DNA of 26,057 nt from a virus, in IMG/VR virus record IMGVR_UViG_3300032770_000088, positions 1 through 26,057 of that record, one strand, 5' to 3'. The position numbers and the translations under genes are program-made. Positions 10,914-26,057 of this stretch are shown here, piece after piece; within the stretch, counting starts at the first letter, position 1, and every line of letters begins with the position of its first letter. Under the pieces are notes generated by a model that worked only from the letters and a program-made list of their open reading frames with translations, searched no databases and was not told the DNA's origin.

Positions 10914-11684
10914 TCAGCGGGGCCGGAACCAGACAGGTGGGCAGCGGCGTTCCGCGACCCAGCGGGGCCATGAGGCGTCCACGTCGGCTGGACGCAGCCT
11001 TTCCGGGCCGCCCGCCGGGGAGTGCCACACCCGCCCGCCCTCATAGCATTCGCCGGCGGCGGCACGGCTGGCGATGTCGGCGTTCTCGTCGCGGTGGCAC
11101 CGGTCAGCCAGTTTCGCGGCGATGCCGTCCCGGCCGCCGAGCCACGACAGGTGCCACCCGCCGGTCACGTGGGCGTACCCGGCGCGGTCCTCACGGATCT
11201 GCGCGACGCCGGCCATGGGGATGTCTGCGACGCGGATCGCGGCGGTGCCCAGCCACGGGTGGGCGCTGACCCAGTCCACCGCGAAAAACGCCAGGTTCAT
11301 CACGAACAGCGACGGCCCGGGGTTCGCCGCCGCCGCCCGCACTGCGGCGGCCGAGGGGATCTCGTCCACATCCCCGAACAGCAGCAGGTCTGAGGGGTAC
11401 GCGCCGGCCAGGCCCTGGGCGACGGCGTCCCGCTGGGCGCGTTCACGTGGCCACGGGTCCGGGCCTCCCGGCAGGTCGGCGCACACCACGTGCACGACCC
11501 GGTCCGCCCACGCCGCGAACCGGTCCTGGTGCTCGGCGTAGTGCAGCGGCTTGGCCCGGCCGGTGCCCTGGGTGGTGGTGGCCTCGCAGACGATGAACCG
11601 GTCCACCACCTCATCGAGTTCAGTGAAACGGCACTCCAGCAGGTCCAGCTCATCGTTGAGGGTGACCCCGTCCCAGATCCACAC
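10914..11684 (-). CDS. Glycosyltransferase family 17-like protein
   Basis: About 256 aa. It opens with VWIWDGVTLNDELDLLECR and ELDEVVDRFIVCEA, then has a FGDVDEIP metal/sugar-nucleotide motif (residues ~104-110) and GGWHLSWLGG (~175-184). These are the hallmark blocks, in order, of GT17 (beta-1,4-N-acetylglucosaminyltransferase-like) enzymes, with the usual N-terminal start just before the DGVxxNDEL motif. GTG at 11684, five bases after the upstream stop, is therefore preferred over the longer frame to 11735. It sits between a gp10-like gene and the tape measure, where the tail chaperone normally abuts the tape measure, so it looks like an inserted accessory gene. A role in adding sugar to tail or capsid protein is inferred; the donor sugar cannot be read from the sequence. 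Confidence 0.88.
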   Translation of the reverse strand: MWIWDGVTLNDELDLLECRFTELDEVVDRFIVCEATTTQGTGRAKPLHYAEHQDRFAAWADRVVHVVCADLPGGPDPWPRERAQRDAVAQGLAGAYPSDLLLFGDVDEIPSAAAVRAAAANPGPSLFVMNLAFFAVDWVSAHPWLGTAAIRVADIPMAGVAQIREDRAGYAHVTGGWHLSWLGGRDGIAAKLADRCHRDENADIASRAAAGECYEGGRVWHSPAGGPERLRPADVDASWPRWVAERRCPPVWFRPR

Positions 11685-11689
11685 CGGGG

Positions 11690-12256
11690 TCAGCTTTCCA
11701 GCATCCGGGCGGTGTCGTTGATCGCCGCCTGGCACGCGTCCTGGACTTCCCGCGCGTCGCTCGCGATTGCCCCCTCAAACCACTGCGGTTTGCCGAGCTG
11801 GTGCGCCCACGTCCACGACGCCCGGTGCACCAGCGGGCGCAGCGCTTGCGGCCGGTACCGGTAACGGCGGGCGTGCGAGCGGCCCAGGTGGAACCGTGCG
11901 CCCTGCGCGAACACCGGGTGCGACCAGCCCCGCGACGAGTCGGTGTGCTTGGGCAGGGTCGACATCCCGGGCGGCATCTTGGACCCGGACGAGATGATGT
12001 TGACCCGCACCCCGGTTCTGTTCAGCCCCACCGACGCGGACACCGTCGCCGCGATTTCCCTGCGCAGGTGCGGGGCGTGATCTTTGTCTTCGGCTGGCAT
12101 GGCCAGGATCGACGCCTGCACATCCTTGACGACCGGGGCGGTGACGCGGCGCAGCTCCCGCAGCAGCGCCCGCCGCAGGTGCGGGTCAGCTTCGCGGAGC
12201 CGGCGGGCCAGCGCCCGCATGTCTTCCGGGCCGGTCCCGGTGACCACTGTCGCCAT
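11690..12256 (-). CDS. HK97 gp10-like / tail-completion-type protein
   Basis: 188 aa from ATG at 12256 with AGGGGGA upstream; the longer frame to 12358 lies inside the chaperone gene. The N-terminal helix-rich part (GPEDMRALARRLREADPHLRR, VTAPVVKDVQASI) followed by a basic, Trp/His-rich middle (SSRGWSHPVF, HARRYRYRPQ) resembles HK97 gp10-family neck or tail-completion proteins. Those usually lie before the major tail protein; here the gene follows the frameshifted chaperone. The ATG shares one base with the TGA of the -1 frameshift product. Alternative: a minor tail or chaperone accessory protein. Confidence 0.65.
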   Translation of the reverse strand: MATVVTGTGPEDMRALARRLREADPHLRRALLRELRRVTAPVVKDVQASILAMPAEDKDHAPHLRREIAATVSASVGLNRTGVRVNIISSGSKMPPGMSTLPKHTDSSRGWSHPVFAQGARFHLGRSHARRYRYRPQALRPLVHRASWTWAHQLGKPQWFEGAIASDAREVQDACQAAINDTARMLES

Positions 12257-14633: not shown

Positions 14634-14661
14634 ACCTGGAGCCCGCGTGCGGGCTCCAGGT
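14634..14661 (-). terminator. Perfect 13-bp stem-loop with 2-base centre
   Basis: Plus-strand ACCTGGAGCCCGC (14634-14646), GT, GCGGGCTCCAGGT (14649-14661) in the 104-base gap before the tail terminator gene. Flanking GGGAGGTGA (14611-14619) and TCACCCTCCC (14661-14670) could extend an outer stem. No U-tract. It may be a factor-dependent terminator or a message-stability element. Confidence 0.6.
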
Positions 14662-14681
14662 CACCCTCCCTCCCAGAAGGC

Positions 14682-15038: not shown

Positions 15039-15832
15039 ACCGCTGGGATGATGTCGGCCTCAAGCAGCTCCAGGACCCGGCGGGGCACCGTGAAACTGAA
15101 CCCCGTCTCGGTGGTGAACTCCTCCTCACCCTGCAAGAGCGCGGGCGGCTGGCCGCCGCGCTGCGTCTCCCACAGGTGGCGGAGCTGTTCCTTCGCCGCG
15201 TGGATGAACCGCTCCGGGATGACCTGCCGGCCCACCGTGTAGGTCACATCCCACGGAGACCACCAGAAGTCGAACGGCGGCACCTGGTAGATGATCCCCG
15301 CCTCAGCGTCGAAATGCAGGACCGTGCTGTCCCACGCCGGGCCGCCCGGCCAGATCGACGTGACCGAGGAGACCGACATGATCGGGTGGCCGGGCACCAC
15401 GATCCGCAGCCGCCCCTCATCGACCCGGTCGGTGAGCTGGCGGGGCACACAGATCCCGACCTTGGATTCGACCAGCTCGGTGGCGGCCATCATGAACTTG
15501 CCCAGCTCCTCATCGGACGCGTCAGTTGTCTTCTTGAGGTGTTCGCGGGCCTCCGCGATCGAGACGATCGAGATGTAGTTGCGGACGTTGATGTAGTCAG
15601 GCAGCGGCGCGGTCGACGGGCCAGTGGTGGCCCATGAGATCTGGTACAGGCCGACCATCGGCAGGACGTAGTCGTAGTAGTACGTGCCGGACCCCGGCGG
15701 GGAGTTCACCGGGTTGGACACGGTCACGATGGTCTGGTCCGGTTTGGTGATCGTCAGCGTGACCGTGCTGGCCGGGACGGAGTTGTCGCCCACGGTGATC
15801 GACGCCCGGTAGGTCTGTCCGGCGCACAGCAT
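15035..15832 (-). CDS. Head-tail connector, gp6-like, with N-terminal beta domain
   Basis: 265 aa from ATG at 15832; the longer frame overlaps the repeat protein and is rejected. Residues 1-~80 form a beta-sandwich (YRASITVGDNSVPASTVTL, TKPDQTIVTVSNPVN, YYYDYVLPMVGLYQI). From about residue 85, SIAEAREHLKKTTDASDEEL and KFMMAATELVESKVG match the first helices of gp6-like DNA-packaging/connector proteins. A beta hairpin region and a C-terminal helix (FIHAAKEQLRHLWETQRGG) follow. It would form a ring below the portal. The extra N-terminal beta domain is not part of the basic gp6 fold and may be a decoration. TGATG links it to the upstream gene. Confidence 0.8.
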   Translation of the reverse strand: MLCAGQTYRASITVGDNSVPASTVTLTITKPDQTIVTVSNPVNSPPGSGTYYYDYVLPMVGLYQISWATTGPSTAPLPDYINVRNYISIVSIAEAREHLKKTTDASDEELGKFMMAATELVESKVGICVPRQLTDRVDEGRLRIVVPGHPIMSVSSVTSIWPGGPAWDSTVLHFDAEAGIIYQVPPFDFWWSPWDVTYTVGRQVIPERFIHAAKEQLRHLWETQRGGQPPALLQGEEEFTTETGFSFTVPRRVLELLEADIIPAV

Positions 15833-17793
15833 CAGGGCTTCCCTCCTGTCGTCGCGGTGCCGGTCACGGCCCCGCTGGCCACTGACCCCGCCGGGCTGGC
15901 CTGCCCGGATGGTGTGCTGGTGCCGGTCACCGCACCGGACGCGGTGCCGGTCACGGCCCACGCCCCGGCGGTGGTCGCGGTGTACAGCACCAGCCCGGAG
16001 GTGACCGACGTGGCGTAGGTGATCGCGGAGGTGACGGTCACCAGGCCCGCCGCCGCGCTGGCCGTGGCGGCGGTCCCGGCCAGGGCCGCCTGCAGCGCCA
16101 GCGTGCCCGCCGCCGCACTAGCCGAGATAGCGGCGGCGGCCAGGGCCGCCTGGAGCGCCAGCAGCGCGGTGGTGGTGGCCGCTGACGCTGCCGCGCCGCC
16201 GAGCCCGTAGACCGGGGCGAGTGTCCCGGCCGCGCTGCTGGCCCGGCTGGCCGAGCCGGTGATGACCAGCGGCGTCCAGGTTCCAGCCGCCGTACTGGCC
16301 GAGCTGGCGGCGGCTGTGATCACGATGGCCAGCCACGCGCCCGCCGCCGTACTGGTGGAGGCGGCGGTGGCGGTCAGCGCGGCTGGGGCGTACGCCAGCG
16401 CCGCTGTGGTGGAGCTGGCCGAGCTGGCGGTGCCGGTGATGGCGGTCAGCCCGGCTATGTTCAGCGCCGCCGTGGTGGAGCTGGCCGAGCTGGCGGTGCC
16501 CGCCAGGGCGGCGGGCGCGAACACCAGCGATCCCGCCGCGCTGGACACCTGCGCCGCAGTGCCGGTGACGCCGTAGATGGGGGCGAGCGCCCCGGCCGCC
16601 GAGCTGGCCGAGGTGGCCGTCCCGCCAGTCACCCCGGCCAGGATCAGGTTCCCCGCCGCCGAGCTGGCCGAGGTGGCGGTGCCGGTGACCGGGGTCCCGG
16701 AGGTGATGGTCAGGTTCCCCGCCGCCGAGCTGGCGGTGACGGCGGTCCCGCCGCCGGTCATCACCTGCGCCAGTGACCCGGCGGCGGCGCTGGCCGAGGT
16801 GGCAGCACCGCCAGTCACCCCGGCCAGCACCGTGCCGCCCGCCGCAGACGACACAGCCGCCGCCGACCCGGCCAGGACCAGCGGCGTCCACGTCCCGGCC
16901 GCCGAGCTGGCCCGCGACGCCGTCCCGGCCAGCGCCGCGATCATCGCCAGGCCCGCCGCCGTGGTCGCGGTGGCCTGCGCGGCGGTGCCGGTGATGCCGT
17001 AGATGGGGGCCAGCGCGCCCGCCGTCGCGGTGACGGTGGTAGCTGTGCCCGCCAGCGGGAACAGTGCCGTCAGGCCGCCCGCTGTGGTGGATGTGCCCGC
17101 TGCCGTCCCGGCCAGCGGCCAGGTCGTGCCACCGGTCGGGACCAGCGCGGTGAAGACCTGCGCGAGCGACGATCCGGCGCGGGATGTGACCGTCGCCCCG
17201 CCGCTGTCCACCACGGTCGCGGACCCTGACGCGCCGTACTGCACGACGCTGACCGCGATCACCGCACCGGCCGGCGGCACGAACCAGTCGGTGGTCACCG
17301 GGCTGGTCGTGCCGGTCACCGGGGCCGGGCCAGAGGAGTCCACCACCGGGGAGACCCCGCCAGAGGCCAGCACCTCGTACACGGCGCAGTAGGCGCTGTC
17401 CCCGCTGAACGCGGTCGCGCCCACCGTGACCGGCGTGCCAGCGGTCACCGGGCTGGAGTAGTAGCCGGTGGCCATCCGGCCGCCACCAGAGGCGGCCACG
17501 TTGTCATCAAGCGTGTTGCCTGTGAGCTGGGTGAACGCGTTCTGGCTGAAATAGTCGTCGTCGGCGTACACCGGCAGGGAGTTCGACCCGGCCGGGGTCA
17601 GGGACAGGCTGCCGGTGGAGTTCCCCGCGTTGGAGTTCCCGCCGGCTTCGGTGGCCCCGGTGAGCACCCGCACGCGGGCCAGGAAGTTCGTCGTGCCGGT
17701 GCCGGGCGTGATGGTGATCTGCCGCGCCCCGGCAGGCAGGACATGCGGGAGCGGAGCCCGGTAGACGTTCGCTGCGCTGCCACGCAGTGGCAT
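15832..17793 (-). CDS. Mucin-like repeat protein, candidate capsid appendage
   Basis: 653 aa. Residues 1-~220 are beta-rich and non-repetitive (RQITITPGTGTTNFLARVRV, YYSSPVTAGTPVTVGAT, WFVPPAGAVIAVSVVQYG). Residues ~226-588 are about 18 imperfect copies of a 19-22-residue unit with consensus LAGTA-SASSAAG-L-hydrophobic. The last ~50 residues repeat ASGAVTGT twice. Composition is overwhelmingly Ala, Ser, Thr and Gly, with almost no charge, so it resembles a heavily O-glycosylatable stalk or a beta-solenoid fibre. It lies between the capsid gene and the connector and near glycosyltransferase genes. I do not recognise the family. Start ATG 17793 has GGGGGTGA upstream. A head fibre or virion surface role is inferred. 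Confidence 0.8.
   Translation of the reverse strand: MPLRGSAANVYRAPLPHVLPAGARQITITPGTGTTNFLARVRVLTGATEAGGNSNAGNSTGSLSLTPAGSNSLPVYADDDYFSQNAFTQLTGNTLDDNVAASGGGRMATGYYSSPVTAGTPVTVGATAFSGDSAYCAVYEVLASGGVSPVVDSSGPAPVTGTTSPVTTDWFVPPAGAVIAVSVVQYGASGSATVVDSGGATVTSRAGSSLAQVFTALVPTGGTTWPLAGTAAGTSTTAGGLTALFPLAGTATTVTATAGALAPIYGITGTAAQATATTAAGLAMIAALAGTASRASSAAGTWTPLVLAGSAAAVSSAAGGTVLAGVTGGAATSASAAAGSLAQVMTGGGTAVTASSAAGNLTITSGTPVTGTATSASSAAGNLILAGVTGGTATSASSAAGALAPIYGVTGTAAQVSSAAGSLVFAPAALAGTASSASSTTAALNIAGLTAITGTASSASSTTAALAYAPAALTATAASTSTAAGAWLAIVITAAASSASTAAGTWTPLVITGSASRASSAAGTLAPVYGLGGAAASAATTTALLALQAALAAAAISASAAAGTLALQAALAGTAATASAAAGLVTVTSAITYATSVTSGLVLYTATTAGAWAVTGTASGAVTGTSTPSGQASPAGSVASGAVTGTATTGGKP
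16030..17118 (-). repeat. ~18 imperfect tandem repeats of 57-66 bases
   Basis: Coding repeats of the 653-residue protein, each encoding a hydrophobic 4-6 residue segment and a GTAxSASSAAG segment. Period varies from 18 to 22 codons, always in frame. Plus-strand GCCGCCGAGCTGGCCGAGGT-like cores recur (for example near 16600, 16660 and 16780). The variation in length and sequence shows divergence and recombination rather than a recent amplification. Confidence 0.9.
16462..16500 (-). repeat. 39-base core shared with a neighbouring gene
   Basis: This segment matches 18962-19000 in the next structural gene but one with a single mismatch, in the same reading phase (TGTASSASSTTAAL). A 29-base part is also repeated at 16406-16434. 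It links the repeat protein and the 428-residue protein by shared sequence. Confidence 0.85.
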
Positions 17794-17807
17794 GGCTCAC
17801 CCCCGGC

Positions 17808-18317
17808 TCAGATCCCCGGTTCGGTCCACAAGATCCACGGGATGACGTTGACGCCCGCCGGGGCTTTGCACCTGAGCCGCACGAACTTGGACACCGGCAC
17901 CTTGGGCTGCCATCGCACCTCGGGGAAGAACACCCCGTACCCGGCCTGCGGGTGCACATGCTGGGAGTCGAATATGCGGGGCGTGCCGGTGATCGTGTTC
18001 TCCGTGCCAAAGTTGTAGCCGGTCGCGGCTGTGCCACCCACGCACAGTGACGCGGTGGCCAGGTCGTTGCCCCACTGGTCGGGGGTCAGCGACGTGCCAG
18101 CGGAGGCGGCCACGTCGGTCTGCATCAGGTGGCAGATCACCGGCACCGCCGCCGAGGATGCCCCGTCGAACGACACACCCCAGCCGATGATGCGGATATC
18201 GGTGGTGCCAGGCACCCCCACCTGGAGGACCGTTTTGGTGGTCGCAGCGACCAGCGCCACCACTACCGGCTCAAACGGCGCGGACGTGGCCCGGGGGGTA
18301 GCGATGTATTCGCTCAC
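17808..18317 (-). CDS. Beta-rich structural candidate of the capsid accessory block
   Basis: 169 aa from GTG at 18317 with GGAG about seven bases upstream and a two-base gap to the previous stop. It is beta-rich (EPVVVALVAATTKTVLQVG, TDIRIIGWGVSFDGAS, YGVFFPEVRWQPKVP, FVRLRCKAPAGVNVIPWIL), without helix, signal or membrane segments, and resembles a jelly-roll virion protein. The family is not recognised. It is tightly packed between the CBM-containing protein and the repeat protein, so a head appendage or decoration role is likely. Confidence 0.75.
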   Translation of the reverse strand: MSEYIATPRATSAPFEPVVVALVAATTKTVLQVGVPGTTDIRIIGWGVSFDGASSAAVPVICHLMQTDVAASAGTSLTPDQWGNDLATASLCVGGTAATGYNFGTENTITGTPRIFDSQHVHPQAGYGVFFPEVRWQPKVPVSKFVRLRCKAPAGVNVIPWILWTEPGI

Positions 18318-18319
18318 CG

Positions 18320-19606
18320 TCAGCTCCTGTAGTTGGCGTGGGTGATGGCCTGCCGGCGGCCCGGGTAGTTCGACAGGTGCCGGCCACGGAGCTGGGCCAC
18401 TGGCAGGACCAGCGGGACCAGGGAACCGGCGGCGCTGCTGGCCTGCCCGGCGTACAGCGAACCGGTGGTGATGATCACGTCATCGAACCAGGCGGCCTGC
18501 GCGCCGGCGGTCGCTGTGAACGCCGGGTAGATCCGGGCGACTGTCGCGGTACCCGGGCTGCTCCCGGCGAATGTGACGAACGTCCACCCGTTCTGGGTCA
18601 GGCCCTGCGCCGCGCCGGTCAGCGTGGACACGTAGGTGGTGCCGTTGTACCAGTCCAGCGCCGGGGTGGATGACAGGCCGGCCGTGCCGGTGTACATCCA
18701 GTACCCGATGTTGTAGGCGGTGCTGGGCGTGACGGTGGCGTAGCCGCCCGAGTTCGGGTACGACGACGCCGCGCCGGACGCCGTCGCGGTGATCTTCATC
18801 GCGTGGGTGCCGCTGTGCGCCTGCGTGGAGTCGTAGGTGACGGTGGAGTTCGCGCCGGTTCCCCAGCACGACCCGTCGGTTTCCATGGACGAGGCGTTGG
18901 CGCTCAGCAGGTTGGTGCCCTGCGCTCCGCCCGAGGTGCCCGCTAGGCCCCACGTCGCGGCCAGCGCCGCCGTGGTGGAACTGGCCGAGCTGGCGGTGCC
19001 GGTCAGCGTGAACGGCCCCGTCCAGGCGGTCAGCGTCTCGGTGAACGCGAGCGAGCACGTCGCGCTGTTGACCCAGAACCGGGCGTAGTGGGTGGTCGTG
19101 GTGGTCAGCGTCCCCGACCCGCCCTGCGCCGACGCGGACCCGATCCACAGGCTGATCCGCAGCCGGTCCCCGTCGGTCAGCGCCGTGTCAGTCATGTTCG
19201 CCGCGCTGATCGTCACGGTGTCAGACGCTGAGGTGGTGGTCATCTCCCCCGCGCCCTCGTTGACCGAGCTGGCGACGATCGTGGCCAGCACCGTCCCATC
19301 GCCCCCGCACCGCTCGATCTGCACGACCGGCGCGGCGTTCGTGGAGGTAGACACCTCCTGGTCGAACAGTGTGCACGTGCAGGTGCCGGTGATCGTCGTC
19401 GCCGCGAGCCGCTGGGAGTACCAGGACACCACCGTCCCGTCGGTGGTGCCGGTCCCGTCGGTCACCTGGTACGGCGGCGCGGACCCGGCCTGCTTGACCA
19501 CCGTCCGCGCTGACGCGGCAGCAGCGGTGGACGCCAGCCAATTGGTGCCGGTGCCCACCACCACCGCCGCGTCAGCGGTGGTACTCGTCAGGTACAGGGT
19601 GGTCAC
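18320..19606 (-). CDS. Structural protein with carbohydrate-binding-like domain and repeat linker
   Basis: 428 aa. Residues 1-~195 are a beta-sandwich (TTLYLTSTTADAAVV, VVSWYSQRLAATTITGT, GDRLRISLWIGSAS). Near residues 200-220 lies one copy of the TGTASSASSTTAALA unit found in the 653-residue protein. Residues ~225-385 resemble a CBM_4_9 jelly roll (NLLSANASSMETDG, YDSTQAHSGTHAMKI, closing with AWFDDVIITTG). Another short AGQASSAAGSL unit and a basic C-terminus (GRHLSNYPGRRQ) follow. GTG at 19606 overlaps the glycosyltransferase stop by four bases. It is probably a virion surface protein that binds sugars or a glycosylated partner; this is inferred from the domains. Confidence 0.75.
   Translation of the reverse strand: MTTLYLTSTTADAAVVVGTGTNWLASTAAAASARTVVKQAGSAPPYQVTDGTGTTDGTVVSWYSQRLAATTITGTCTCTLFDQEVSTSTNAAPVVQIERCGGDGTVLATIVASSVNEGAGEMTTTSASDTVTISAANMTDTALTDGDRLRISLWIGSASAQGGSGTLTTTTTHYARFWVNSATCSLAFTETLTAWTGPFTLTGTASSASSTTAALAATWGLAGTSGGAQGTNLLSANASSMETDGSCWGTGANSTVTYDSTQAHSGTHAMKITATASGAASSYPNSGGYATVTPSTAYNIGYWMYTGTAGLSSTPALDWYNGTTYVSTLTGAAQGLTQNGWTFVTFAGSSPGTATVARIYPAFTATAGAQAAWFDDVIITTGSLYAGQASSAAGSLVPLVLPVAQLRGRHLSNYPGRRQAITHANYRS
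18962..19000 (-). repeat. Copy of the repeat-protein core in the CBM-containing gene
   Basis: Matches 16462-16500 over 39 bases with one mismatch (A for G at 18980). It encodes the linker between the two beta domains. Confidence 0.85.
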
Positions 19607-20265
19607 GGCAGCCGCACCTCACCCATGATCACCGGCTTGACATGCCCCACCTGAACCCCGGTGTGCACGTACAAGCCGAACCCGGCGGCGGCGGCGCGGA
19701 TGCAGAACGACAGATCCTCCCCGATGTGCCGGGAGCCGTGCATCGACTCGCGGAACCACACCTCGGCCCCGCCCGCGTCCGCCTGGATCTTCTCCAGCAC
19801 GCCCCGGTGGATCAGCAGGCAGCCCGCCCCGGCCGCGTGGACTTTCAGCAGCGTGCCGTCCGGCCAGTCCTTGAACGGGCTGAACGTCAGCTCCCCGTCG
19901 CCGTCGGCGGCGTGCGCGTGGTAGGCGGCGGGCACCTGCTGTTCCCGCGCCGCCACCCAGTACAGGCCGGACATGACCGGCCGTTCCGCCGCGTCGGCCG
20001 CAGCGGCCAGCGCGGGCAGCGTGCCGGGCGCGAACACGATGTCGGTGTCCACGCACCACAGCCACTCCATCGACCCGGCCAGGAACTGGCGGCACAGGAT
20101 GTTGCGGGCCATCGCGATCAGCGGCCCCGCCGAGCAGTCCGACACGCCGCCTATTAGCGGGCACGCGTCCGGGCCGGTCACCGCAGCCAGCACCGACCGC
20201 ATGAACTCCGCCCGGACGGTGCCGCCGTGGATGTAGCCCAGCAGCACCGAATGATCCGCGATCAC
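19603..20265 (-). CDS. GT-A glycosyltransferase (GT2-like)
   Basis: 220 aa from GTG at 20265, which overlaps the upstream stop by four bases; the longer open frame lies inside the preceding genes. SVLLGYIHGGTVRAEFM at the N-terminus, MARNILCRQFLAG, a WCVDTDIVFAPG DXD motif (residues 73-75), GAGCLLIHRGVL and a GEDLSFCIRAAAAGF block (182-184, catalytic acid) with VHTGVQVGHVKP at the end form the usual order of GT-A nucleotide-sugar transferases found in phages. The size is short but complete. It sits between a small beta protein and the CBM-containing structural gene and is coupled to both, suggesting it modifies a co-made virion protein. The donor sugar is unknown. Confidence 0.85.
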   Translation of the reverse strand: MIADHSVLLGYIHGGTVRAEFMRSVLAAVTGPDACPLIGGVSDCSAGPLIAMARNILCRQFLAGSMEWLWCVDTDIVFAPGTLPALAAAADAAERPVMSGLYWVAAREQQVPAAYHAHAADGDGELTFSPFKDWPDGTLLKVHAAGAGCLLIHRGVLEKIQADAGGAEVWFRESMHGSRHIGEDLSFCIRAAAAGFGLYVHTGVQVGHVKPVIMGEVRLP

Positions 20266-20540
20266 GCGGTCCCGGAACCCCACAGCAGCAGGTACCCGGC
20301 GTCGCTGGCCAGCCCCGTCGGCATGGTCACCACCGTCCCGGCCCAGCTCGCGGCGATCTCCACGAACGACGTGACCCCGATGATCACCGCCCGGTTGATG
20401 AACTGCAGGGCGTTGATCCCTGACGGCCCCACATCGAGCGTGTCCCCGGTGGTCACGTCCCGCAGCGCGATCAGCACCACCTTGTCCGCCTGCCCGGCCT
20501 GGTAGACGATCGTCGCCTGCGCCCCGTTCAGTACCGCCAT
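20262..20540 (-). CDS. Small beta-rich hypothetical protein
   Basis: 92 aa. ATG at 20540 is five bases after GGAGG; the GTG at 20543 is too close to that site. It is hydrophobic and beta-rich (TIVYQAGQADKVVLIALRD, LQFINRAVIIGVTSFVEIA, YLLLWGSG). The fold looks like a compact barrel, not a membrane protein. Its ATG overlaps the previous TGA by one base and its stop overlaps the glycosyltransferase start. The function is not recognised; a decoration protein or a small fibre subunit is plausible. Confidence 0.7.
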   Translation of the reverse strand: MAVLNGAQATIVYQAGQADKVVLIALRDVTTGDTLDVGPSGINALQFINRAVIIGVTSFVEIAASWAGTVVTMPTGLASDAGYLLLWGSGTA

Positions 20541-20971
20541 CACTGCCTCCGTAGTGTCGTTCCGGTTCTCGGTTCGGCCGCGTGATCGAGCAGCAGCAGG
20601 TCAAGCGGCTTGAGGTACGCGGTCCCGGCGACGCCCCGGGCCGCGCAGTCAGAGCACCATGAGGTGCCCGCCGCGACCATCTGGGCGTGGACCGGGCATA
20701 GCCAGCAGTCCCGCTGGTGCTGGTTCAGGCACCAGCGCCGCCAGTACGACGCGGGGGTAGCGCCGCATTCGATCGCGCCGGGGCCGATGCCTTTGGCCTG
20801 GCATGGGTGCATGCGCGGCACATGCAGGTCATGTATCGCGGGCTCGATCGTGTGCACCACCGGGGTGTGATCGAGCAGCACCGCGCCCCGGCTGCCCGCG
20901 ATGGGCCGGGCCGGCGGGACGGGTACCGGGGTGACCCCGGCGGGGAGCTGGGGCATGTCGCGGCGGGTCAC
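20540..20971 (-). CDS. Cys-rich protein, possible zinc-binding
   Basis: 143 aa if GTG at 20971 is the start (an ATG at 20956 is the alternative). Seven Cys and several His lie in HPCQAKGIG, IECGATPASYW, RRWCLNQHQRDCWLCPVH and SWCSDCAARG, forming CxxC-like pairs that suggest one or two zinc ribbons. The N-terminus is Pro-rich. The C-terminus is hydrophobic then charged (LKPLDLLLLDHAAEPRTG). No family recognised. It is co-expressed with a fibre-like gene and the glycosyltransferase; it could be an assembly factor rather than a virion component. Confidence 0.65.
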   Translation of the reverse strand: MTRRDMPQLPAGVTPVPVPPARPIAGSRGAVLLDHTPVVHTIEPAIHDLHVPRMHPCQAKGIGPGAIECGATPASYWRRWCLNQHQRDCWLCPVHAQMVAAGTSWCSDCAARGVAGTAYLKPLDLLLLDHAAEPRTGTTLRRQ

Positions 20972-20972
20972 G

Positions 20973-21422
20973 TCACACCTGGCAGGTGAACGCGGCAGCC
21001 GCCCCCTGGAGGCTGTCACCGGAGACCGGGGTCCGGGCGGTGCCCAGCAGGTAGGCGACCAGCAGGTTCGCGGTCGTGCCCGACGACGCGTCGGTCATCA
21101 TCCCCCAGTAGATCGTGGTCCCCGGGCTGCTGGATGTCGGCCCGAAAGTGATCGTGTTGGAGTTGGAGATCACCGACGGGGACGCCGAGCTGGGCGTGCC
21201 GATCGTGAACGCCTGCCGGGCGTAACCGTTCGCCGGACCACCCATGTACTCAGTGACCTGGGCCATTGTGGTCCAGGTATTGTCCAGCGACCCAGACGCT
21301 GCATTGGTCAGCAACGCCAGATACGGTGAGGTGCCTGATACCGGGACCGTGGCCCCTAGAGCTGCTTGCAGGGCTCGCTTCTCGCCGCCAGTGACGATCT
21401 GCCCCGCCGAGATGGTACTCAT
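20973..21422 (-). CDS. Gp80-like fibre/appendage protein
   Basis: 149 aa. The opening helix (GEKRALQAALGATVP), SPYLALLTNAASG, EYMGGPANGYARQAFTIG, SNSNTITFGPTSSSPG and IYWGMMTDASSGTTANLLVAYLLGTARTPVSGDSL match the small phage fibre family often labelled Gp80-like, which has the YLALxT, GYARQ, ITFGP and VxxGD blocks. Such proteins are virion surface subunits. The ATG overlaps the preceding stop by four bases (ATGA). Whether it is attached to the head or tail is not shown; its position in the capsid-proximal block suggests the head. Confidence 0.75.
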   Translation of the reverse strand: MSTISAGQIVTGGEKRALQAALGATVPVSGTSPYLALLTNAASGSLDNTWTTMAQVTEYMGGPANGYARQAFTIGTPSSASPSVISNSNTITFGPTSSSPGTTIYWGMMTDASSGTTANLLVAYLLGTARTPVSGDSLQGAAAAFTCQV

Positions 21423-21685
21423 GCGATCACGAACAGCAGCTCGCCGGATGCTGACCAGTCCCAGTCCGGGTCAGCCGTGGACAGCCGCACAGTTACCTTG
21501 ACAGCGCCATCACTGTCGGCCTCCTGCACGATGCTGTTGACCACCATCGGCAGGTCCGCGTTAGCCGCGTCGGTGAACGCGAAGCTCAGCAGACCTGCCG
21601 AGGTGAAACCGCTCGGTATGTAGGTGCTGACCGCCAAGGGGCCTTGCCAGCTCAGGGGACCGATCGTTGCCTTCAGAGTCACCAT
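21419..21685 (-). CDS. Small beta-rich hypothetical protein
   Basis: 88 aa, starting MVTLKATIGPLSW. Beta strands dominate (LAVSTYIPSGFTSAGLLSF, GAVKVTVRLSTADPDWDW, GELLFVIA). There are no membrane or Cys motifs. It lies one base after the previous stop and overlaps the Gp80-like gene by four bases. It is too small and plain to assign; a fibre partner or cement protein is one possibility. Confidence 0.65.
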   Translation of the reverse strand: MVTLKATIGPLSWQGPLAVSTYIPSGFTSAGLLSFAFTDAANADLPMVVNSIVQEADSDGAVKVTVRLSTADPDWDWSASGELLFVIA

Positions 21686-21686
21686 G

Positions 21687-22001
21687 TCAGTCCACCTCCC
21701 GGAACAGCTCCGCGAACGTATCCGGGGCGATCGTCGTGGCGCGGTCGTGGCCCAGCCCGTCCACCCACTCCACGATCACGTGCCCGGACTCCTCGGCCAC
21801 CCCGGCATGGGTCACGACTGTGCCGTGTTTCATGTCCAGGTCGGCCATCGTCAGCTCACCGGGCATCGCTGGATGCTGCGGTGCGCCCTCCGCGCCGTGC
21901 CGCGTCGCGGACCGCTCCTCAAGCGGCGGGTGCTCCGGGTCGGCGTGGTGCTCACCGAACCCGGCCTCCGCCGGGTGCTCGTACACGTACCTGGTGCCCA
22001 T
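21687..22001 (-). CDS. Small hypothetical protein, possible SH3-like domain
   Basis: 104 aa; AGGAGG five bases before ATG at 22001. The N-terminal half is His/Glu/Pro-rich and probably disordered (HPAEAGFGEHHADPEHPP). The C-terminal half (MKHGTVVTHAGVAEESGHVIVEWVDG) looks like a small SH3/KOW-type barrel. It begins a subcluster after the 162-base gap. The function is unknown. Confidence 0.65.
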   Translation of the reverse strand: MGTRYVYEHPAEAGFGEHHADPEHPPLEERSATRHGAEGAPQHPAMPGELTMADLDMKHGTVVTHAGVAEESGHVIVEWVDGLGHDRATTIAPDTFAELFREVD

Positions 22002-22163
22002 CCCCGCCTCCTGGAGGGTCGCGGCCCGAAACTGTCCCCCCGCGCGGCCCTGGACGCGCCAGGGCCATGATCACGGTGGGGTGTGGGTGATGACATGCGG
22101 GCACCCGCCGGGGGCCGCTAGCGCGGTCCTGGCGTCGCGCCCGTGTGGACTGCCGGTGGCCGG
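22002..22163 (-). other. 162-base gap with stem-loops, no gene seen
   Basis: No open frame with a credible start is seen. Besides the 8-bp stem at 22046-22066, it holds the GC-rich segment around 22105-22125 that could fold weakly. It separates the methyltransferase/disordered-protein genes from the fibre subcluster and may mark a processing or partial termination point. Confidence 0.5.
22046..22066 (-). terminator. Perfect 8-bp stem-loop
   Basis: Plus-strand GGCCCTGG (22046-22053), 5-base loop, CCAGGGCC (22059-22066). It lies in the 162-base gap before the 104-residue gene. No U-tract, so a classical terminator is not shown. Confidence 0.5.
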
Positions 22164-22559
22164 TCAGCGCTTCCCGGGACGGCCCGGGTGCGAGGGACCC
22201 GGCTTACCGGGCGGGGGCCGCTCAGCCGACTCAGCGCGCCCCGGCGGGCGCGGCGGCTTGCGCTCCGGTGTGCTTTCCTTCGCGGGCGGCTCCTGCCGCG
22301 ACCGCTCCTCCCGCCGCGCCTCCTCGTCGCGCTGCTGCGCTTCGCGCCGCTCCGCCTCAGCCTTGAACCGGGCGTTCTCCGCAGCGGTCGTCCCATGATC
22401 AGACCCCGGCTGGGACTGCTCAGCCGTCGCCTCCCCATACTCGGGGAAACTCATCCCCTCCCCGCCGTCAGCCATCGACTGGTCCACGCCCGGCTGCGCC
22501 GAGTACGCCGGGTTCGGCCCGTAAGCCAGCGGGTTGCCGTCATCCTTGTCACGCGCCAC
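22164..22559 (-). CDS. Disordered, highly charged hypothetical protein
   Basis: About 131 aa if GTG at 22559 is used, which has a strong GGAGGAG site 6-7 bases upstream; an ATG at 22595 has almost none. It overlaps the methyltransferase end by 11 bases. The N-terminus is polar (DKDDGNPLAYGPNPAYSAQ); the middle is a charged helix (AENARFKAEAERREAQQRDE); the C-terminus is Pro/Arg/Lys-rich and disordered. It resembles scaffolding- or assembly-type low-complexity proteins but lies after the capsid gene, unlike a usual scaffold. Function unknown. Confidence 0.65.
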   Translation of the reverse strand: MARDKDDGNPLAYGPNPAYSAQPGVDQSMADGGEGMSFPEYGEATAEQSQPGSDHGTTAAENARFKAEAERREAQQRDEEARREERSRQEPPAKESTPERKPPRPPGRAESAERPPPGKPGPSHPGRPGKR

Positions 22560-23163
22560 CGCGATCTCCTCCGAACTCGTCGCCTTCCCGGACATGGATC
22601 ACACCCCAGCCCGGCCCACCCTCCCGGTTGCATAGCTGGCTGGACTCGTACTGGTCCGCCAGGTACGGCCACACCTTGTGGACCTGCGCCCGGTGATCGC
22701 TGTCCGACCGGATGTCATGCAGCAGGATCACCCCGCCGGGGCGGACCATCGGCCCGTAATCCGCCAGGTCCGCCAGCACGCCCGCCTCCGAATGGTCCCC
22801 GTCGATCACCAGCGCATCCACCGGGCTGCCCGCCAGCTTGCCCACCAGCCACAGCCGCGACAGCCCGTCGTGGCTGTCACCCATCCGCATCTGCGCGCCG
22901 TAGTCGACCAGCGGCTGCCCCGACCCGCCGGTCTCATACGAGTTGTCCGCGATCGTGATCCCGTACACCCGTTCCGCCAGCGACCGCCAGCAGTACAGGG
23001 TGCCGCCCCGGTCGCAGCCGATCTCCACGATCACGTCATGCGGGTCCAGGCCCGCGATCAGGTCGCGGGCCATCGCCAGCTCCTGCGGGTCCTGCGACGC
23101 GCCGAGCGCCATCGCCTGGTTGATCACCGGGTCCGGGTGCACCCCACCCCACCACGCGGTCAC
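22549..23163 (-). CDS. SAM-dependent methyltransferase, CmcI/Methyltransf_24-like
   Basis: 204 aa from GTG at 23163, which overlaps the preceding small gene by four bases; a longer frame is inside that gene and is rejected. QDPQELAMARDLI, VIVEIGCDRGGTLYCW (SAM motif I), YGITIADNSY, DALVIDGDHSEAGVLADL and YGPMVRPGGVILLHDI are the blocks of cephalosporin-hydroxylase-like / Methyltransf_24 enzymes, which often methylate sugars. With the neighbouring FkbM domain this gives two methyltransferases next to glycosyltransferases. O-methylation of virion glycans is inferred. DNA methylation is less likely because no DPPY/NPPY motif is seen. Confidence 0.85.
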   Translation of the reverse strand: MTAWWGGVHPDPVINQAMALGASQDPQELAMARDLIAGLDPHDVIVEIGCDRGGTLYCWRSLAERVYGITIADNSYETGGSGQPLVDYGAQMRMGDSHDGLSRLWLVGKLAGSPVDALVIDGDHSEAGVLADLADYGPMVRPGGVILLHDIRSDSDHRAQVHKVWPYLADQYESSQLCNREGGPGWGVIHVREGDEFGGDRGGA

Positions 23164-23357
23164 CGCCGCAGCCGATCGGGAACAGGCACGCCGGGCGCGG
23201 CGGCCACATGCAGCGGGTGGCCCAGGTCCCGGCCGCACACGCAGTTCCCCGCCCCCGAGGTGACATCACGGGCGTACACGTGCGGGCGGCCGTACTGCGC
23301 CGGCCCAGGGCCGATCGAGCCCTCCCAGCCGGGGACCGGCTCACGCGGGCCGCTCAC
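23160..23357 (-). CDS. Small Cys-motif protein
   Basis: 65 aa. GTG at 23357 overlaps the GT4-FkbM stop by four bases (GTGA) and its own stop overlaps the methyltransferase start, so it is a true link in the coupled chain. The core is GRPHVYARDVTSGAGNCVCG followed by RDLGHPLH. A CxC with two nearby His could bind a metal. It is too small for an enzyme. I do not recognise the function. Confidence 0.7.
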   Translation of the reverse strand: MSGPREPVPGWEGSIGPGPAQYGRPHVYARDVTSGAGNCVCGRDLGHPLHVAAAPGVPVPDRLRR

Positions 23358-25345
23358 CGCGTGTCGCCCTGCGCCGGGGTGGCGATCACATACGGCGCGG
23401 ACCGGTCAGCGGGCAGCCGCGCCATGAACGGCTTGGGCTCATACCCCAGGCTCACCAGCAGCGAGATCAGCGTCTCATGCTCGTAGTAGCCGTAGATCGA
23501 ATGGTCCTCGATGAACAGGACCGGCTGGAACCGTTTCAGCAGCCCAGCCATCCCAGCCAGCGCCCGCAGGTCGCTGCCTTCCACATCGAGCTTGACCAGA
23601 TCGAGCTGGGGGATACTCGGCCCCTCGTCGTCGTGCAGGCCGAGCAGCAGGTCCAGCGGCGCGGCCTGCACCAGCCCACTGTCCCGTTCCGGGTCCTCCA
23701 GGCCGCCCGGTTCCAGGGTGCGGGTCGACCCGCCGGTCACCCGCTCGTTCGGGTCCTCCAGCGTCAGCCGGGTCATCTCGTCCCACGCGGCGGCCTCGAT
23801 CACCGTCACGTTGGGAACCTCGTTCAGCGCGATGTGGTAGCGCAGCACAGCGGCTGTCGCCGGGTTCGGTTCCACCGCGACCACCTGGCTGGCCTTGCCC
23901 GCCAGCCGCAGCGCCCACCGGCCGATGTGCGCGCCCACGTCCAGCAGCACGCCACCTTCGGGCATCAGGTCATCCAGGACCGGTTCCAGGGTGGCCTCAT
24001 GCTCAACCGCGATCCAGTCGTCGGTGTGGGAGCCGCGTGCCAGCCACCGCATCCCGCCCGCCTCGATCGTCGGCAGCGGGATAGCGTCCAGGTCCGCTGT
24101 GAGGTTCCCCGTCGGCAGTCCCGCCGCGTTGACCTCCAGCTTGCGGCCGGGCGGCCGGACCTTCGCCAGGCCCGCGTACTGCTCCAGCATGTCCAGCGCC
24201 GGCAGCCAGTACTCCGCGAACACCCTGTCCATGTCGTACCCCAGCGCGAACTGCCGCGCCGCGTCCCGGTACTTCGCGGTCAGGTTCTCAGACTGCCCAG
24301 CGGTCCACGCCTTCTCCAGCGCCGCGACGATGCTGCGGGTGAACACCGTCGCCCACCACGCCTGGTCGTCCTCATACCACCAGTCCTGGCACTCAGCCAG
24401 CCACCCCGAGCCGCACACCTCAGGCTGCGCCGAGTTGTCACCCACGATCACAGGTGTGCCGCACGCCTGCGCCTGCAGCGCCGACAGGCCGAACCCCTCA
24501 CCCATGGATGGCTGCAGCAGCACGTCCGCCGTGCCCTCGATCGCCGCGATGTACTCGTCGGGGTACAGGCCGACCCACTGCCGGTAGTCGGAGGAGAAGA
24601 TCACACAGTCCCCGATGCCCAGGTCCGCGATCAGGGGCCGCATGTCGAGACCGAACGCCGACGACGCGAAGCTGTGGATGAACAGCACCGCTTCGGTGTG
24701 CCGCTGGTGGAACGCGGCGAACGCGGCCAGCGCCTCACCCCACGACTTGCGGGCCGGGGCCTTGCCCTTGTTCGCGCCGACCATCACCACCAGGAACGCA
24801 TCGGTGGGCACCTTGATCCGGCGGCGTACCGTGGCGCGCTCCTCGCCGGTCAGCGGCCGGAACTTCGCGGTGTCCACCCCGTGGGGGATGTACACCGGCT
24901 CCATGTTCCGCGCCCGCATCTGCGCCTCACCGAACCGCGACATCGCGAGCGGCTGCGCCCCCGACAGGGCGAAAAACCGCTGATCGCCCACACTCATCGG
25001 GCGGGAGTGGACCGGGGTCCACGCGGCGCACGCCCGGCCCACCACCGCCTCCGGGCCGATCGCCCACGCGTCGTACAGGGTGATGATCAGCCCCGGGTCG
25101 TTCCCGAACCAGTACTCGGCGTGGGCGGGCAGGATGTCGCTGGAGTAGGGCGTCATCCCGCCGGGCAGCATCGTGATCCCGTCCAGCTCCCCGATATGAT
25201 CACCCACCGCCGTCATGCACGACACCGCCACGTCGTACCCGGCTTTGGCGACGCGGGGCACCACCTCGCCGGTCTGATCGCCGTAGCCGGTGAAACTCAG
25301 CGGCTTCGGCGCGTTGGAATGCCACAGGATCGGCTTCCTGGCCAC
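23354..25345 (-). CDS. GT4 glycosyltransferase fused to FkbM-type methyltransferase
   Basis: 663 aa from GTG at 25345 with GGGAGG upstream. Residues ~1-390 are a GT-B, GT4-like transferase: PVYIPHGVDTAKFRP (about 150-164), FLVVMVGANKGK (184-195), and the donor-binding PSMGEGFGLSALQAQACGTP (279-298) with its E-x7-E pattern. Residues ~440-650 are a FkbM-family methyltransferase: GVLLDVGAHIGRWALRLAG (SAM motif I, 465-483), VVAVEPNPATAAVL, LDLVKLDVEGSDLRAL (581-596). A ~50-residue linker joins them. One polypeptide could transfer a sugar and then O-methylate it. It follows the 97-residue gene by 26 bases and is the first large gene after the capsid gene. The acceptor is unknown; a virion protein is likely from context. 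Confidence 0.9.
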   Translation of the reverse strand: MARKPILWHSNAPKPLSFTGYGDQTGEVVPRVAKAGYDVAVSCMTAVGDHIGELDGITMLPGGMTPYSSDILPAHAEYWFGNDPGLIITLYDAWAIGPEAVVGRACAAWTPVHSRPMSVGDQRFFALSGAQPLAMSRFGEAQMRARNMEPVYIPHGVDTAKFRPLTGEERATVRRRIKVPTDAFLVVMVGANKGKAPARKSWGEALAAFAAFHQRHTEAVLFIHSFASSAFGLDMRPLIADLGIGDCVIFSSDYRQWVGLYPDEYIAAIEGTADVLLQPSMGEGFGLSALQAQACGTPVIVGDNSAQPEVCGSGWLAECQDWWYEDDQAWWATVFTRSIVAALEKAWTAGQSENLTAKYRDAARQFALGYDMDRVFAEYWLPALDMLEQYAGLAKVRPPGRKLEVNAAGLPTGNLTADLDAIPLPTIEAGGMRWLARGSHTDDWIAVEHEATLEPVLDDLMPEGGVLLDVGAHIGRWALRLAGKASQVVAVEPNPATAAVLRYHIALNEVPNVTVIEAAAWDEMTRLTLEDPNERVTGGSTRTLEPGGLEDPERDSGLVQAAPLDLLLGLHDDEGPSIPQLDLVKLDVEGSDLRALAGMAGLLKRFQPVLFIEDHSIYGYYEHETLISLLVSLGYEPKPFMARLPADRSAPYVIATPAQGDTR

Positions 25346-25371
25346 ACTGTCCTCCCGGTTCTGGCCTGGGC

Positions 25372-25665
25372 TCAGCTAACGCCGTCGTCGGTGGACGACA
25401 GGATCACCACGCCCAGCGGTTCCGGGGTGTCCACCCCGGGCACCTCCGCGATGTCGCTGTCGTGCGGGCCGCCCGTGTCCACGACCTTGCCCGCGTCGCA
25501 CCGGGACTGCTCAGCCGACTGCGCGGCGTCCATCAGGCCCGCGACGTGCGAGGTGTGCTCGGTGTCAGGGAAGTAGTTGCCCAGCGACTCGTACTCGTCC
25601 ACCGCTGGCTGACCCGGTCCCGACGGGCCGATCGGCTCGGTGGAGCCGCCTGCGCCAACACTCAT
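25372..25665 (-). CDS. Small acidic hypothetical protein after the capsid gene
   Basis: 97 aa from ATG at 25665 with a strong AAAGGAG site; the longer frame to 25935 lies inside the capsid gene. The protein is acidic and polar (PSGPGQPAVDEYESLG, FPDTEHTSHVAGLMDAAQS, a single Cys, VVDTGGPHDSD) and ends in a hydrophobic strand (LGVVILSSTDD). No motif is recognised. Its position directly after the capsid gene and a stem-loop suggests a capsid-associated or assembly protein. Confidence 0.7.
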   Translation of the reverse strand: MSVGAGGSTEPIGPSGPGQPAVDEYESLGNYFPDTEHTSHVAGLMDAAQSAEQSRCDAGKVVDTGGPHDSDIAEVPGVDTPEPLGVVILSSTDDGVS

Positions 25666-25687
25666 GCCGTGCTCCTTTCCAGGCAGG

Positions 25688-25725
25688 CCAGGACCCCGGG
25701 CAGGGAAGCGCTCCCGGGGTCCTGG
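25688..25725 (-). terminator. Perfect 13-bp stem-loop after the major capsid gene
   Basis: Plus-strand CCAGGACCCCGGG (25688-25700), 12-base loop, CCCGGGGTCCTGG (25713-25725) in the gap after the capsid stop at 25745. No U-tract follows on the minus strand. A strong structure just past the capsid gene often helps keep capsid message high relative to downstream genes. Confidence 0.6.
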
Positions 25726-25744
25726 TGCTGCGGGGTTGCTGCGG

Positions 25745-26057
25745 TCAGGCGGTGCCGCCGGTCGCCCAGCGGAACGCGTTCGGGGCGGCGCAGTCCGACC
25801 CGACCCGCCAGTAATAGAACCACCCCTGGTTACCGGACGGCAGGTTCGCCTGCCCGGTGCCGGTGCCCTTGACCAGGGGGTCGAACAGCATCGTGGAACC
25901 GATCCGGTCCACGATGTAGAACTTGCTCCAGTCACCGAACACCCCGGCGGCGGCGGCGATGGCCGTGCCGGTGCCCGGCGTCTGGGTCAGCGACGGCGAC
26001 TCGCGGATCGGCTTCTCCATGAGCTGCGGCGGCTGCCCCTGGCCCAGGTTGGCCCAG
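25745..26057 (-). CDS. Major capsid protein, HK97 family (C-terminal part)
   Basis: Only the last ~103 codons lie in the window; the frame is open to the right edge, so the start is missing (an internal ATG at 26020 is not the real start). GQGQPPQLMEKPIRESPSL, then GDWSKFYIVDRIGSTMLFDP, LPSGNQGWFYYWRVGSD and PNAFRWATGG are the usual C-terminal blocks of HK97-fold capsid proteins, where a loop and the final strand close the A-domain. It forms the icosahedral shell. It is probably preceded outside the window by protease, portal and terminase genes. It would be the main capsid target if glycosylation acts on the shell. Confidence 0.85.
   Translation of the reverse strand, partial: WANLGQGQPPQLMEKPIRESPSLTQTPGTGTAIAAAAGVFGDWSKFYIVDRIGSTMLFDPLVKGTGTGQANLPSGNQGWFYYWRVGSDCAAPNAFRWATGGTA

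What the first reader, a model, noticed from the sequence alone, without database searches (positions are those of the whole stretch)
15832..25665. Ten-kilobase virion decoration and glycosylation block between capsid and connector genes
Siphovirus connector genes usually follow the major capsid gene closely. Here about 10 kb separate them. The block holds a GT4-FkbM fusion, a GT-A transferase, a second methyltransferase, a CBM-like beta protein, a Gp80-like fibre, several small beta proteins and a mucin-like repeat protein, all on one strand with mostly 1-4-base overlaps. The enzyme genes are coupled to structural genes. Glycosylated capsids and tails are known for some actinophages, but this set (two GTs, a CmcI-like and a FkbM methyltransferase, and an abundant Ser/Thr acceptor candidate) looks like a self-contained module. 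What is seen: families and packing. What is inferred: that the products decorate the virion with methylated glycans.
Basis: partly seen in the sequence, partly recalled or inferred. Interest (0 to 1): 0.75.

Follow-up and report, generated by a model that had tools for sequence, protein, structure and literature searches.

The report
Phage capsid-adjacent sugar-decoration gene island
Between its shell gene and its head-tail connector gene, an uncultivated bacterial virus carries about 10 kb of sugar-attaching and methylating enzymes mixed with surface-decoration proteins, most likely to coat its own particle with modified sugars; dozens of relatives carry the same kind of island, which resembles modules already shown to glycosylate some mycobacterial viruses.

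Summary
The block is real. On the minus strand, 9.9 kb lie between the end of an HK97-type capsid gene (25745) and the connector gene (starts at 15832). It holds a GT4-FkbM fusion, a GT-A glycosyltransferase with intact DxD/ED motifs, a Methyltransf_24/CmcI-like methyltransferase, a Gp80-like protein, a beta-sandwich protein, and a 653-residue Ala/Thr/Ser repeat protein. A third glycosyltransferase (GT17) lies outside the block, before the tape-measure gene.

The arrangement recurs. Of 41 relatives found through the connector alone, 24 have a gap over 2 kb, and 20 of those carry this GT-A gene; none of the 17 short-gap relatives does. Relatives found through GT4 alone have a capsid gene less than 3 kb upstream in 66 of 82 loci. 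The predicted GT-A fold matches virus STIV's A197 and polypeptide GalNAc-transferases.

Best reading: a late-expressed module that puts methylated glycans on virion proteins, as in mycobacteriophages Che8 and Corndog, but not orthologous to theirs. Corrections: "self-contained" is wrong; the repeat protein's Ser/Thr richness is not conserved, so it is a weak acceptor candidate; the CBM call has no profile support. No glycan has been shown. New variant of a known kind.

The parts
25745..26056 (-). C-terminal 103 aa of the HK97-type major capsid protein (cut by the end of the record)
   Evidence: PF05065 E 3.2e-5; 39 hit segments in relatives' capsid ORFs, best E 2e-26
25663..25748 (-). strong hairpin in the spacer just after the capsid stop codon; probable attenuator/terminator
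   Evidence: dG -42.3, z -2.45; strong hairpin at the same place in 29 of 41 relatives at z<-2.5
25372..25665 (-). g02, small acidic protein, 97 aa, unknown
   Evidence: ATG with GGAAAGGAG upstream; no relatives found
23354..25345 (-). g03, GT4 glycosyltransferase fused to FkbM methyltransferase, 663 aa
   Evidence: PF00534 1.3e-9, PF05050 6.3e-16; GT4 part 36% identical to phiPsal1 and Mae-JY09; a fusion of the same build, 40% identical over 645 aa, in L143
23160..23357 (-). g04, 65-aa ORF overlapping both neighbours by 4 nt
22549..23163 (-). g05, class I SAM methyltransferase (Methyltransf_24 / CmcI-like), 204 aa
   Evidence: PF13578 2.6e-12, PF04989 25.1 bits; relatives beside GT4 genes in L117 and L083
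22164..22559 (-). g06, charged Pro-rich 131-aa protein
   Evidence: no relatives
21687..22001 (-). g07, 104-aa protein, unknown
21419..21685 (-). g08, 88-aa probable beta protein
   Evidence: sequence only
20973..21422 (-). g09, Gp80-like / head-protein-like, 149 aa
   Evidence: PF23140 2.1e-11, phrog_240 head protein 2.3e-5
20540..20971 (-). g10, Cys/His-rich (possible zinc-binding) 143-aa protein
   Evidence: sequence; Cys-rich ORFs at similar positions in L007, L009, L100 by eye, not homologous by search
20262..20540 (-). g11, 92-aa probable beta protein
   Evidence: relatives in L145, L146 (1e-31) and L124, upstream of the connector
19603..20265 (-). g12, GT-A glycosyltransferase, 220 aa: the commonest enzyme of the island in relatives
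   Evidence: phrog_34859 3.7e-23; invariant D73-T-D75, W170-F171, D184, H208; model pLDDT 83.7; PDB match STIV A197 then ppGalNAc-Ts
18320..19606 (-). g13, 428-aa Thr/Ala/Ser-rich beta protein holding one copy of the g15 repeat; CBM-like only by eye
   Evidence: 44 nt 95% identical to g15; no profile match
17808..18317 (-). g14, 169-aa beta-sandwich protein, conserved small gap protein
   Evidence: homologues in nine relatives, up to 71% identity; model pLDDT 87, matches only uncharacterised phage proteins
15832..17793 (-). g15, 653-aa protein: N-terminal beta domain + ~20-residue Ala/Thr/Ser/Gly repeats
   Evidence: period 20; N-terminal domain homologous to L109; g14-g15-g16 order kept in L155
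15035..15832 (-). g16, head-tail connector (gp6-like) with an extra N-terminal Ig-like domain; downstream border
   Evidence: phrog_442 3.3e-19; alignments A3/A4
10914..11735 (-). g23, GT17-family glycosyltransferase outside the reported block
   Evidence: PF04724 1.7e-20; distant relative in one marine virus

Best explanation
The block is a late-operon virion-decoration island of an uncultivated high-GC siphovirus, and its enzymes most likely glycosylate and methylate the phage's own virion proteins. SHOWN: the gene content, intact catalytic motifs in the GT-A enzyme, its protein-glycosyltransferase-like predicted fold, and recurrence of capsid-GT-decoration-connector order in many relatives. 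INFERRED: the GT-A enzyme (perhaps with the GT17) attaches a first sugar to Ser/Thr on capsid, tail-tube or decoration proteins as they are made; the GT4 domain extends it; the fused FkbM domain and the separate Methyltransf_24 enzyme O-methylate the sugars. The small beta proteins, the Gp80-like protein and the repeat protein are head or neck decorations that share the surface with the glycans. The hairpin after the capsid gene probably keeps these products below capsid level.
For: Families. Connector-anchored sample, chosen without regard to enzymes: 24 loci with a gap over 2 kb, 20 with this GT-A plus L117 with a GT4 and L163 with a possible GT by eye; 17 short-gap loci, none. GT4-anchored sample: capsid gene under 3 kb upstream in 66 of 82 loci, with other capsid families upstream in L029 and L044. 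L143 repeats the GT4-FkbM fusion in the gap. Cultured phiPsal1 and Mae-JY09 have GT genes between capsid and neck. The GT-A model's best PDB matches are STIV A197, a viral GT proposed to glycosylate its capsid, then ppGalNAc-Ts, LH3 and COLGALT1 (PMC10551542). Precedent: Corndog-type phages have an O-MT and three GTs among head genes, the enzymes are absent from virions, and capsid peptides are under-recovered (PMC4351075); Che8 gp108 is a GT2-methyltransferase fusion; capsid and tail-tube glycosylation by such GTs is reported (Freeman 2023, via PMC12363180).
Against: No glycan, glycopeptide or virion composition data exist for this phage or its relatives. The GT-A, GT4 and methyltransferase are not detectably homologous to Che8 enzymes. 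L097 and L144 have decoration genes without a detected GT, so decoration does not need one. The long-gap/GT association rests on few independent events: the tree gives 2-5 contrasts, not significant, and the GT gene itself takes up part of the gap. Fold similarity at 11-20% identity does not fix the acceptor.
Confidence: 0.72

Rival explanations
1. The enzymes remodel host surface glycans (teichoic acid, arabinogalactan, capsule) late in infection, for superinfection exclusion or to release progeny from receptors. The decoration genes are merely neighbours.
For: GT4, GT2 and FkbM families act on cell-surface glycans in bacteria (own knowledge); the nearest solved GT4s include actinobacterial phosphatidylinositol mannosyltransferases. 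Sugar-nucleotide epimerases accompany the GTs in L095 and L141, and by eye in Mae-JY09. Relatives' gaps hold apiosidase-like and pectate-lyase-like proteins that act on polysaccharide.
Against: GT genes lie immediately beside the capsid gene across phages with several capsid families, which is not expected of an exclusion gene. No membrane-anchoring family was matched in the enzyme frames. The GT-A fold resembles protein glycosyltransferases.
Confidence: 0.12
2. The island is a hotspot for unrelated late cargo (morons) held behind the capsid terminator. Enzymes and decoration proteins share a place but no pathway, and some enzymes may be idle.
For: Enzyme content varies greatly between relatives. 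Most of the small ORFs (g02, g04, g06-g10, g13) have no relatives in the sample. Decoration without GT occurs (L097, L144).
Against: One GT-A family recurs in most long-gap loci with invariant catalytic residues. GTs and methyltransferases recur together, and two distant phages share the same GT4-FkbM fusion. No unrelated cargo such as toxin, resistance or replication genes was matched in the gap proteins examined.
Confidence: 0.1
3. The glycosyltransferases modify phage DNA (glucosylation of a hypermodified base) and not protein.
For: Phage-encoded GTs that glucosylate DNA are well known (T4-type; own knowledge). phrog_2675, a weak hit of g05, is labelled DNA methyltransferase.
Against: The genes sit in the late structural operon and not with replication genes. 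There is no DNA-glucosyltransferase profile match. Pfam assigns g05 to Methyltransf_24/CmcI. FkbM and CmcI families methylate sugars or small molecules (own knowledge).
Confidence: 0.04

Closest known systems
Cluster O mycobacteriophages (Corndog, Firecracker, Catdawg) O-methyltransferase + 3 GT cassette
   Same: Methyltransferase (PF13578/PF05711) and several GT-A-type GTs packed among head genes of an actinophage; enzymes not found in virions; capsid peptides under-recovered; glycosylated proteins later reported
   Different: Cassette lies between portal and protease, not capsid and connector; GT2/GT25, no GT4-FkbM; no decoration block
Mycobacteriophage Che8 gp108-gp110
   Same: A GT-methyltransferase fusion plus two more GTs; capsid glycosylation reported
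   Different: At the right genome end, not beside the capsid; fusion is GT2-TylF/Methyltransf_24, not GT4-FkbM; no significant BLAST match to the window enzymes
Pontimonas phage phiPsal1 (MG835450)
   Same: Capsid - GT4 - SAM methyltransferase - GT2 - HK97 gp6 neck; GT4 36% identical to g03
   Different: 2.5-kb gap, methyltransferase on the opposite strand, no decoration proteins, no FkbM fusion
IMG/VR L143 (3300017528_000064)
   Same: GT4-FkbM fusion of the same size (40% over 645 aa) upstream of decoration genes and the same connector family; tail tube 47%
   Different: Has an apiosidase-like protein (PF13204 3e-31) and no GT-A of this family on the fragment
IMG/VR L007/L093 (3300010398_000019)
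   Same: Capsid - GT-A - methyltransferase - small beta proteins - 662-aa repeat protein - connector; closest connector, 38%
   Different: 6.4-kb gap, no GT4-FkbM; repeats differ
STIV A197
   Same: Minimal GT-A glycosyltransferase, best PDB fold match (E 3e-8, TM 0.59/0.67); proposed to glycosylate the STIV capsid (PMC10551542)
   Different: Archaeal virus with an unrelated capsid; 20% identity

Membership tests
Virion-glycosylation modules of actinobacteriophages (Che8/Corndog type) | several phage-encoded GTs with at least one methyltransferase | tested here: met
   g03, g05, g12, g23
Virion-glycosylation modules of actinobacteriophages (Che8/Corndog type) | genes placed within the virion structural operon (Corndog) | tested here: met
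   Between capsid and connector, same strand, coupled genes
Virion-glycosylation modules of actinobacteriophages (Che8/Corndog type) | sequence homology to the proven GTs (Che8 gp110 / Corndog gp38, GT25) | tested here: not met
   No significant BLAST match; GT-A HMM vs Che8 gp110 only 9 bits
Virion-glycosylation modules of actinobacteriophages (Che8/Corndog type) | glycans covalently bound to capsid or tail tube | not testable with these tools
   needs mass spectrometry
GT-A fold glycosyltransferase (g12) | DxD motif and catalytic acidic residue conserved | tested here: met
   D73, D75, D184, H208 invariant in 10 sequences
GT-A fold glycosyltransferase (g12) | GT-A fold | tested here: met
   AF2 model pLDDT 83.7; 177 PDB matches at E<=0.001, the 50 listed being glycosyltransferases or GT-domain proteins
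GT4 glycosyltransferase (g03 N-terminal half) | Pfam GT4 profile over cut-off | tested here: met
   PF00534 38.3 bits vs 26.4; PF13692 35.7 vs 27
FkbM methyltransferase (g03 C-terminal half) | PF05050 over cut-off, full domain | tested here: met
   59.4 bits vs 22.7, positions 1-172 of 173
CmcI-like methyltransferase (g05) | RMNT_CmcI profile match | tested here: inconclusive
   25.1 bits vs cut-off 23.2 but only 34 positions; Methyltransf_24 is the better fit
Gp80 podophage fibre / head protein (g09) | PF23140 over cut-off | tested here: met
   44.7 bits vs 27; phrog_240 head protein 2.3e-5
Carbohydrate-binding module (g13) | match to a CBM profile | tested here: not met
   no Pfam or PHROG family at E<=0.01
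Mucin-like O-glycan acceptor (g15) | Pro/Thr/Ser-rich tandem repeats | tested here: not met
   Ala 25%, Ser+Thr 28%, Pro 4%
Mucin-like O-glycan acceptor (g15) | Ser/Thr density kept in relatives that carry the GT | tested here: not met
   0.11-0.23 in the repeat part of most relatives, 0.30 only in the window and L008

The most novel reading that the evidence does not exclude
In a large uncultivated group of siphoviruses, the capsid-connector gap is a dedicated carbohydrate island that both builds a methylated glycan coat and displays glycan-binding or glycan-cleaving proteins (apiosidase-like, pectate-lyase-like, lectin-like repeats) on the head or neck. The head, not only the tail, would then interact with soil or host polysaccharide through an interchangeable set of proteins and sugars.
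Probability: 0.2. Interest if true: 0.75.

Novelty: new variant of a known kind. Interest (0 to 1): 0.5.

Why it matters
Glycosylated virions have been shown for only a few cultured actinophages, where the sugars hide the particle from antibodies. If this island does the same, virion glycosylation is widespread in uncultivated phages with several capsid types, and its location (directly after the capsid gene) gives a simple genomic marker for it. In an environment without antibodies the purpose of such a coat is an open question (stability, adhesion to polysaccharide, evasion of host defences at the surface). The long-gap and short-gap pairs within one connector family are a natural comparison. 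The GT4-FkbM and GT-methyltransferase fusions suggest that sugar transfer and methylation are coupled.

Tried and rejected
Near-identity DNA search of 50,697 phages: no match. IMG/VR search with the whole GT4-FkbM protein alone: no relatives; the three-sequence GT4 alignment gave 80+. GT-A and connector alignments against GTDB genomes: none confirmed, so no host and no prophage copy. tblastn of the Gp80-like protein in phages: none. PDB sequence searches for g09 and g12: nothing significant. GT17 in 49 relatives: no hit, but the control rang nowhere, so absence is not shown. g14 fold vs PDB: best E 0.006 to viral jelly rolls, not significant. The Fisher test p 5e-8 is not claimed as evidence strength, because the tree leaves only 2-5 independent contrasts and the GT lengthens the gap by itself. 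A mucin-like acceptor was considered and set aside. A first alignment used a truncated copy of g03 by mistake and was replaced by A2. One PHROG call failed on wrong coordinates. Corndog itself is not in the phage collection under the two accessions tried; Firecracker and Catdawg stood in. Freeman 2023 is not held and is cited through papers that summarise it.
Full report
WHAT IS THERE. The window is the whole of a 26,057-bp linear virus record with 71% G+C. It carries one late operon read on the minus strand: capsid C-terminus, the block, connector (phrog_442), further head-tail genes, major tail protein (PF25595), chaperone region, tape measure, minor tail protein, holin. The block runs from the capsid stop at 25745 to the connector start at 15832. 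It holds fourteen ORFs, including three enzyme genes: GT4-FkbM, a Methyltransf_24 enzyme and a GT-A glycosyltransferase. Eight of fifteen junctions overlap. The repeat protein is Ala/Thr/Ser-rich and Pro-poor, with a period of about 20 residues. A GT17-family gene outside the block means that the window has three glycosyltransferases and two methyltransferase domains in all.

IS IT MORE THAN CHANCE? Three samples were drawn in different ways. (1) Connector-anchored: IMG/VR loci found with the connector alone. Of 41 with both capsid and connector on the contig, 24 have a gap over 2 kb and 20 of these carry the window's GT-A family. L117 has a GT4 instead, and L163 has a GT-like ORF by eye. L097 and L144 have none detected. 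The 17 short-gap loci have no GT-A. Some loci are near-duplicates. The tree needs about five changes of gap state, and only two independent contrasts lie on well-supported branches. So the pattern is consistent but not statistically independent. Part of it is also trivial, since a GT gene lengthens the gap; but the gene itself accounts for only about 0.65 kb of gaps of 4-9 kb. (2) GT4-anchored: 80 IMG/VR loci plus two cultured phages. A capsid gene lies under 3 kb upstream in 66 of 82, and further capsid families lie upstream in L029 and L044. The second capsid profile was grown from the annotated Mae-JY09 capsid; one member checked matches PF05065 just below the cut-off. (3) Cultured phages: phiPsal1 and Mae-JY09 have GT4 and other sugar genes between capsid and neck.

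WHAT THE ISLAND LOOKS LIKE IN RELATIVES. The commonest enzyme is the GT-A gene. Optional enzymes are a second GT, Methyltransf_24 or other methyltransferases, an NAD-dependent epimerase and GT4. FkbM is rare: one further case in 49 records, and that one is again fused to GT4, 40% identical over 645 residues. Around the enzymes stand small beta proteins. g14 has relatives in nine loci and keeps the order g14-g15-g16 in L155. A 400-1000-residue protein lies immediately upstream of the connector. In L107 and L144 this slot holds a pectate-lyase-like beta-helix. L009 and L143 carry apiosidase-like proteins in the gap. L009 also has a domain of minor tail proteins. L108 carries the same Gly_rich_2 domain as the window's tail protein g25. 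These are surface proteins with carbohydrate-related folds; where on the particle they sit is not known.

HOW IT MOST LIKELY WORKS. Shown: the GT-A enzyme has invariant DxD, ED-type acid and His positions. Its model (pLDDT 83.7) matches STIV A197 best, followed by polypeptide GalNAc-transferases, LH3 and COLGALT1. A197 is essential for STIV and is proposed to glycosylate its capsid (PMC10551542). Inferred: a first sugar is set on virion Ser/Thr, GT4 extends it, FkbM and Methyltransf_24 methylate it. The most likely acceptors are the abundant capsid and tail-tube proteins and the gap proteins. In its counterparts the repeats change length (18, 20, 36 residues) and composition, and Ser+Thr drops to 0.11-0.23 in most. 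A strong hairpin follows the capsid stop in the window and in 29 of 41 relatives, so products of the block are probably made in smaller amounts than capsid protein. That last step is inference from the RNA fold alone.

COMPARISON WITH WHAT IS KNOWN. Cluster O mycobacteriophages carry an O-methyltransferase and three GTs between portal and protease. The authors noted that these enzymes are absent from virions, that capsid peptides are oddly few, and that methyl and glycan modification could explain it (PMC4351075). Che8 gp108 is a GT2-methyltransferase fusion followed by two GTs. Glycosylation of Che8, Corndog and Myrna capsid and tail proteins by phage GTs was reported by Freeman et al. 2023 (doi 10.1016/j.chom.2023.05.028), read here only through PMC12363180 and PMC11256854. 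The window works like these modules. It is not an orthologue: no significant match to Che8 enzymes. It differs in place, in enzyme families and in the decoration block. Hence 'new variant of a known kind'.

VERDICT. The value lies less in this one window than in the recurrence: a fixed place after the capsid gene where many uncultivated phages keep what look like virion-directed sugar enzymes and decoration proteins. No host was identified, and no biochemical evidence exists.

Noticed in passing
25663-25748 (-) and 75 nt after the capsid stop in L093-L163: A strong RNA hairpin directly after the capsid stop codon in the window and in 29 of 41 relatives (z below -2.5), in short- and long-gap phages alike; probable attenuator that sets capsid above downstream genes.
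   Followed up: partly
10914-11735 (-): A GT17-family glycosyltransferase between the tail chaperone region and the tape-measure gene, a place where extra enzymes are not expected.
   Followed up: partly
L107:6841-8649, L144:8400-9986, L141:8151-9983, L150:7854-9827: In place of the repeat protein, the ORF immediately upstream of the connector is a pectate-lyase-like beta-helix (profile match in L107 and L144, by eye in the other two), usually a tailspike fold.
   Followed up: partly
L009:4850-6310, L143:5333-6667: Apiosidase-like glycoside hydrolase domains (PF13204, 3e-17 and 3e-31) upstream of the connector, inside the gap.
   Followed up: partly
L083:3650-17170: Between capsid and tail-tube genes: decoration genes, GT4, methyltransferase, and by eye an epimerase, an asparagine-synthase-like ORF and several more GT/methyltransferase ORFs; a whole sugar-pathway-like cluster in a phage.
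   Followed up: no
15578-15832 (-), residues 1-85 of g16: The connector carries an extra N-terminal Ig-like domain, shared by relatives with long and short gaps.
   Followed up: partly
18960-19003 and 15832-17793 (-): g13 holds one copy of the g15 repeat (44 nt at 95%), a sign of recent repeat exchange between neighbouring decoration genes.
   Followed up: no
14580-14690 (-): A second strong hairpin with a long G+C-rich stem between g17 and g18, dG -55, z -2.4.
   Followed up: no
990-1565 (-): g32 after the holin matches a phrog annotated enoyl-CoA hydratase-like (3e-11) but no Pfam family; its role is unresolved.
   Followed up: no
8744-9103: 135-bp tandem repeat (2.3-2.7 copies) inside the tape-measure gene.
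   Followed up: no
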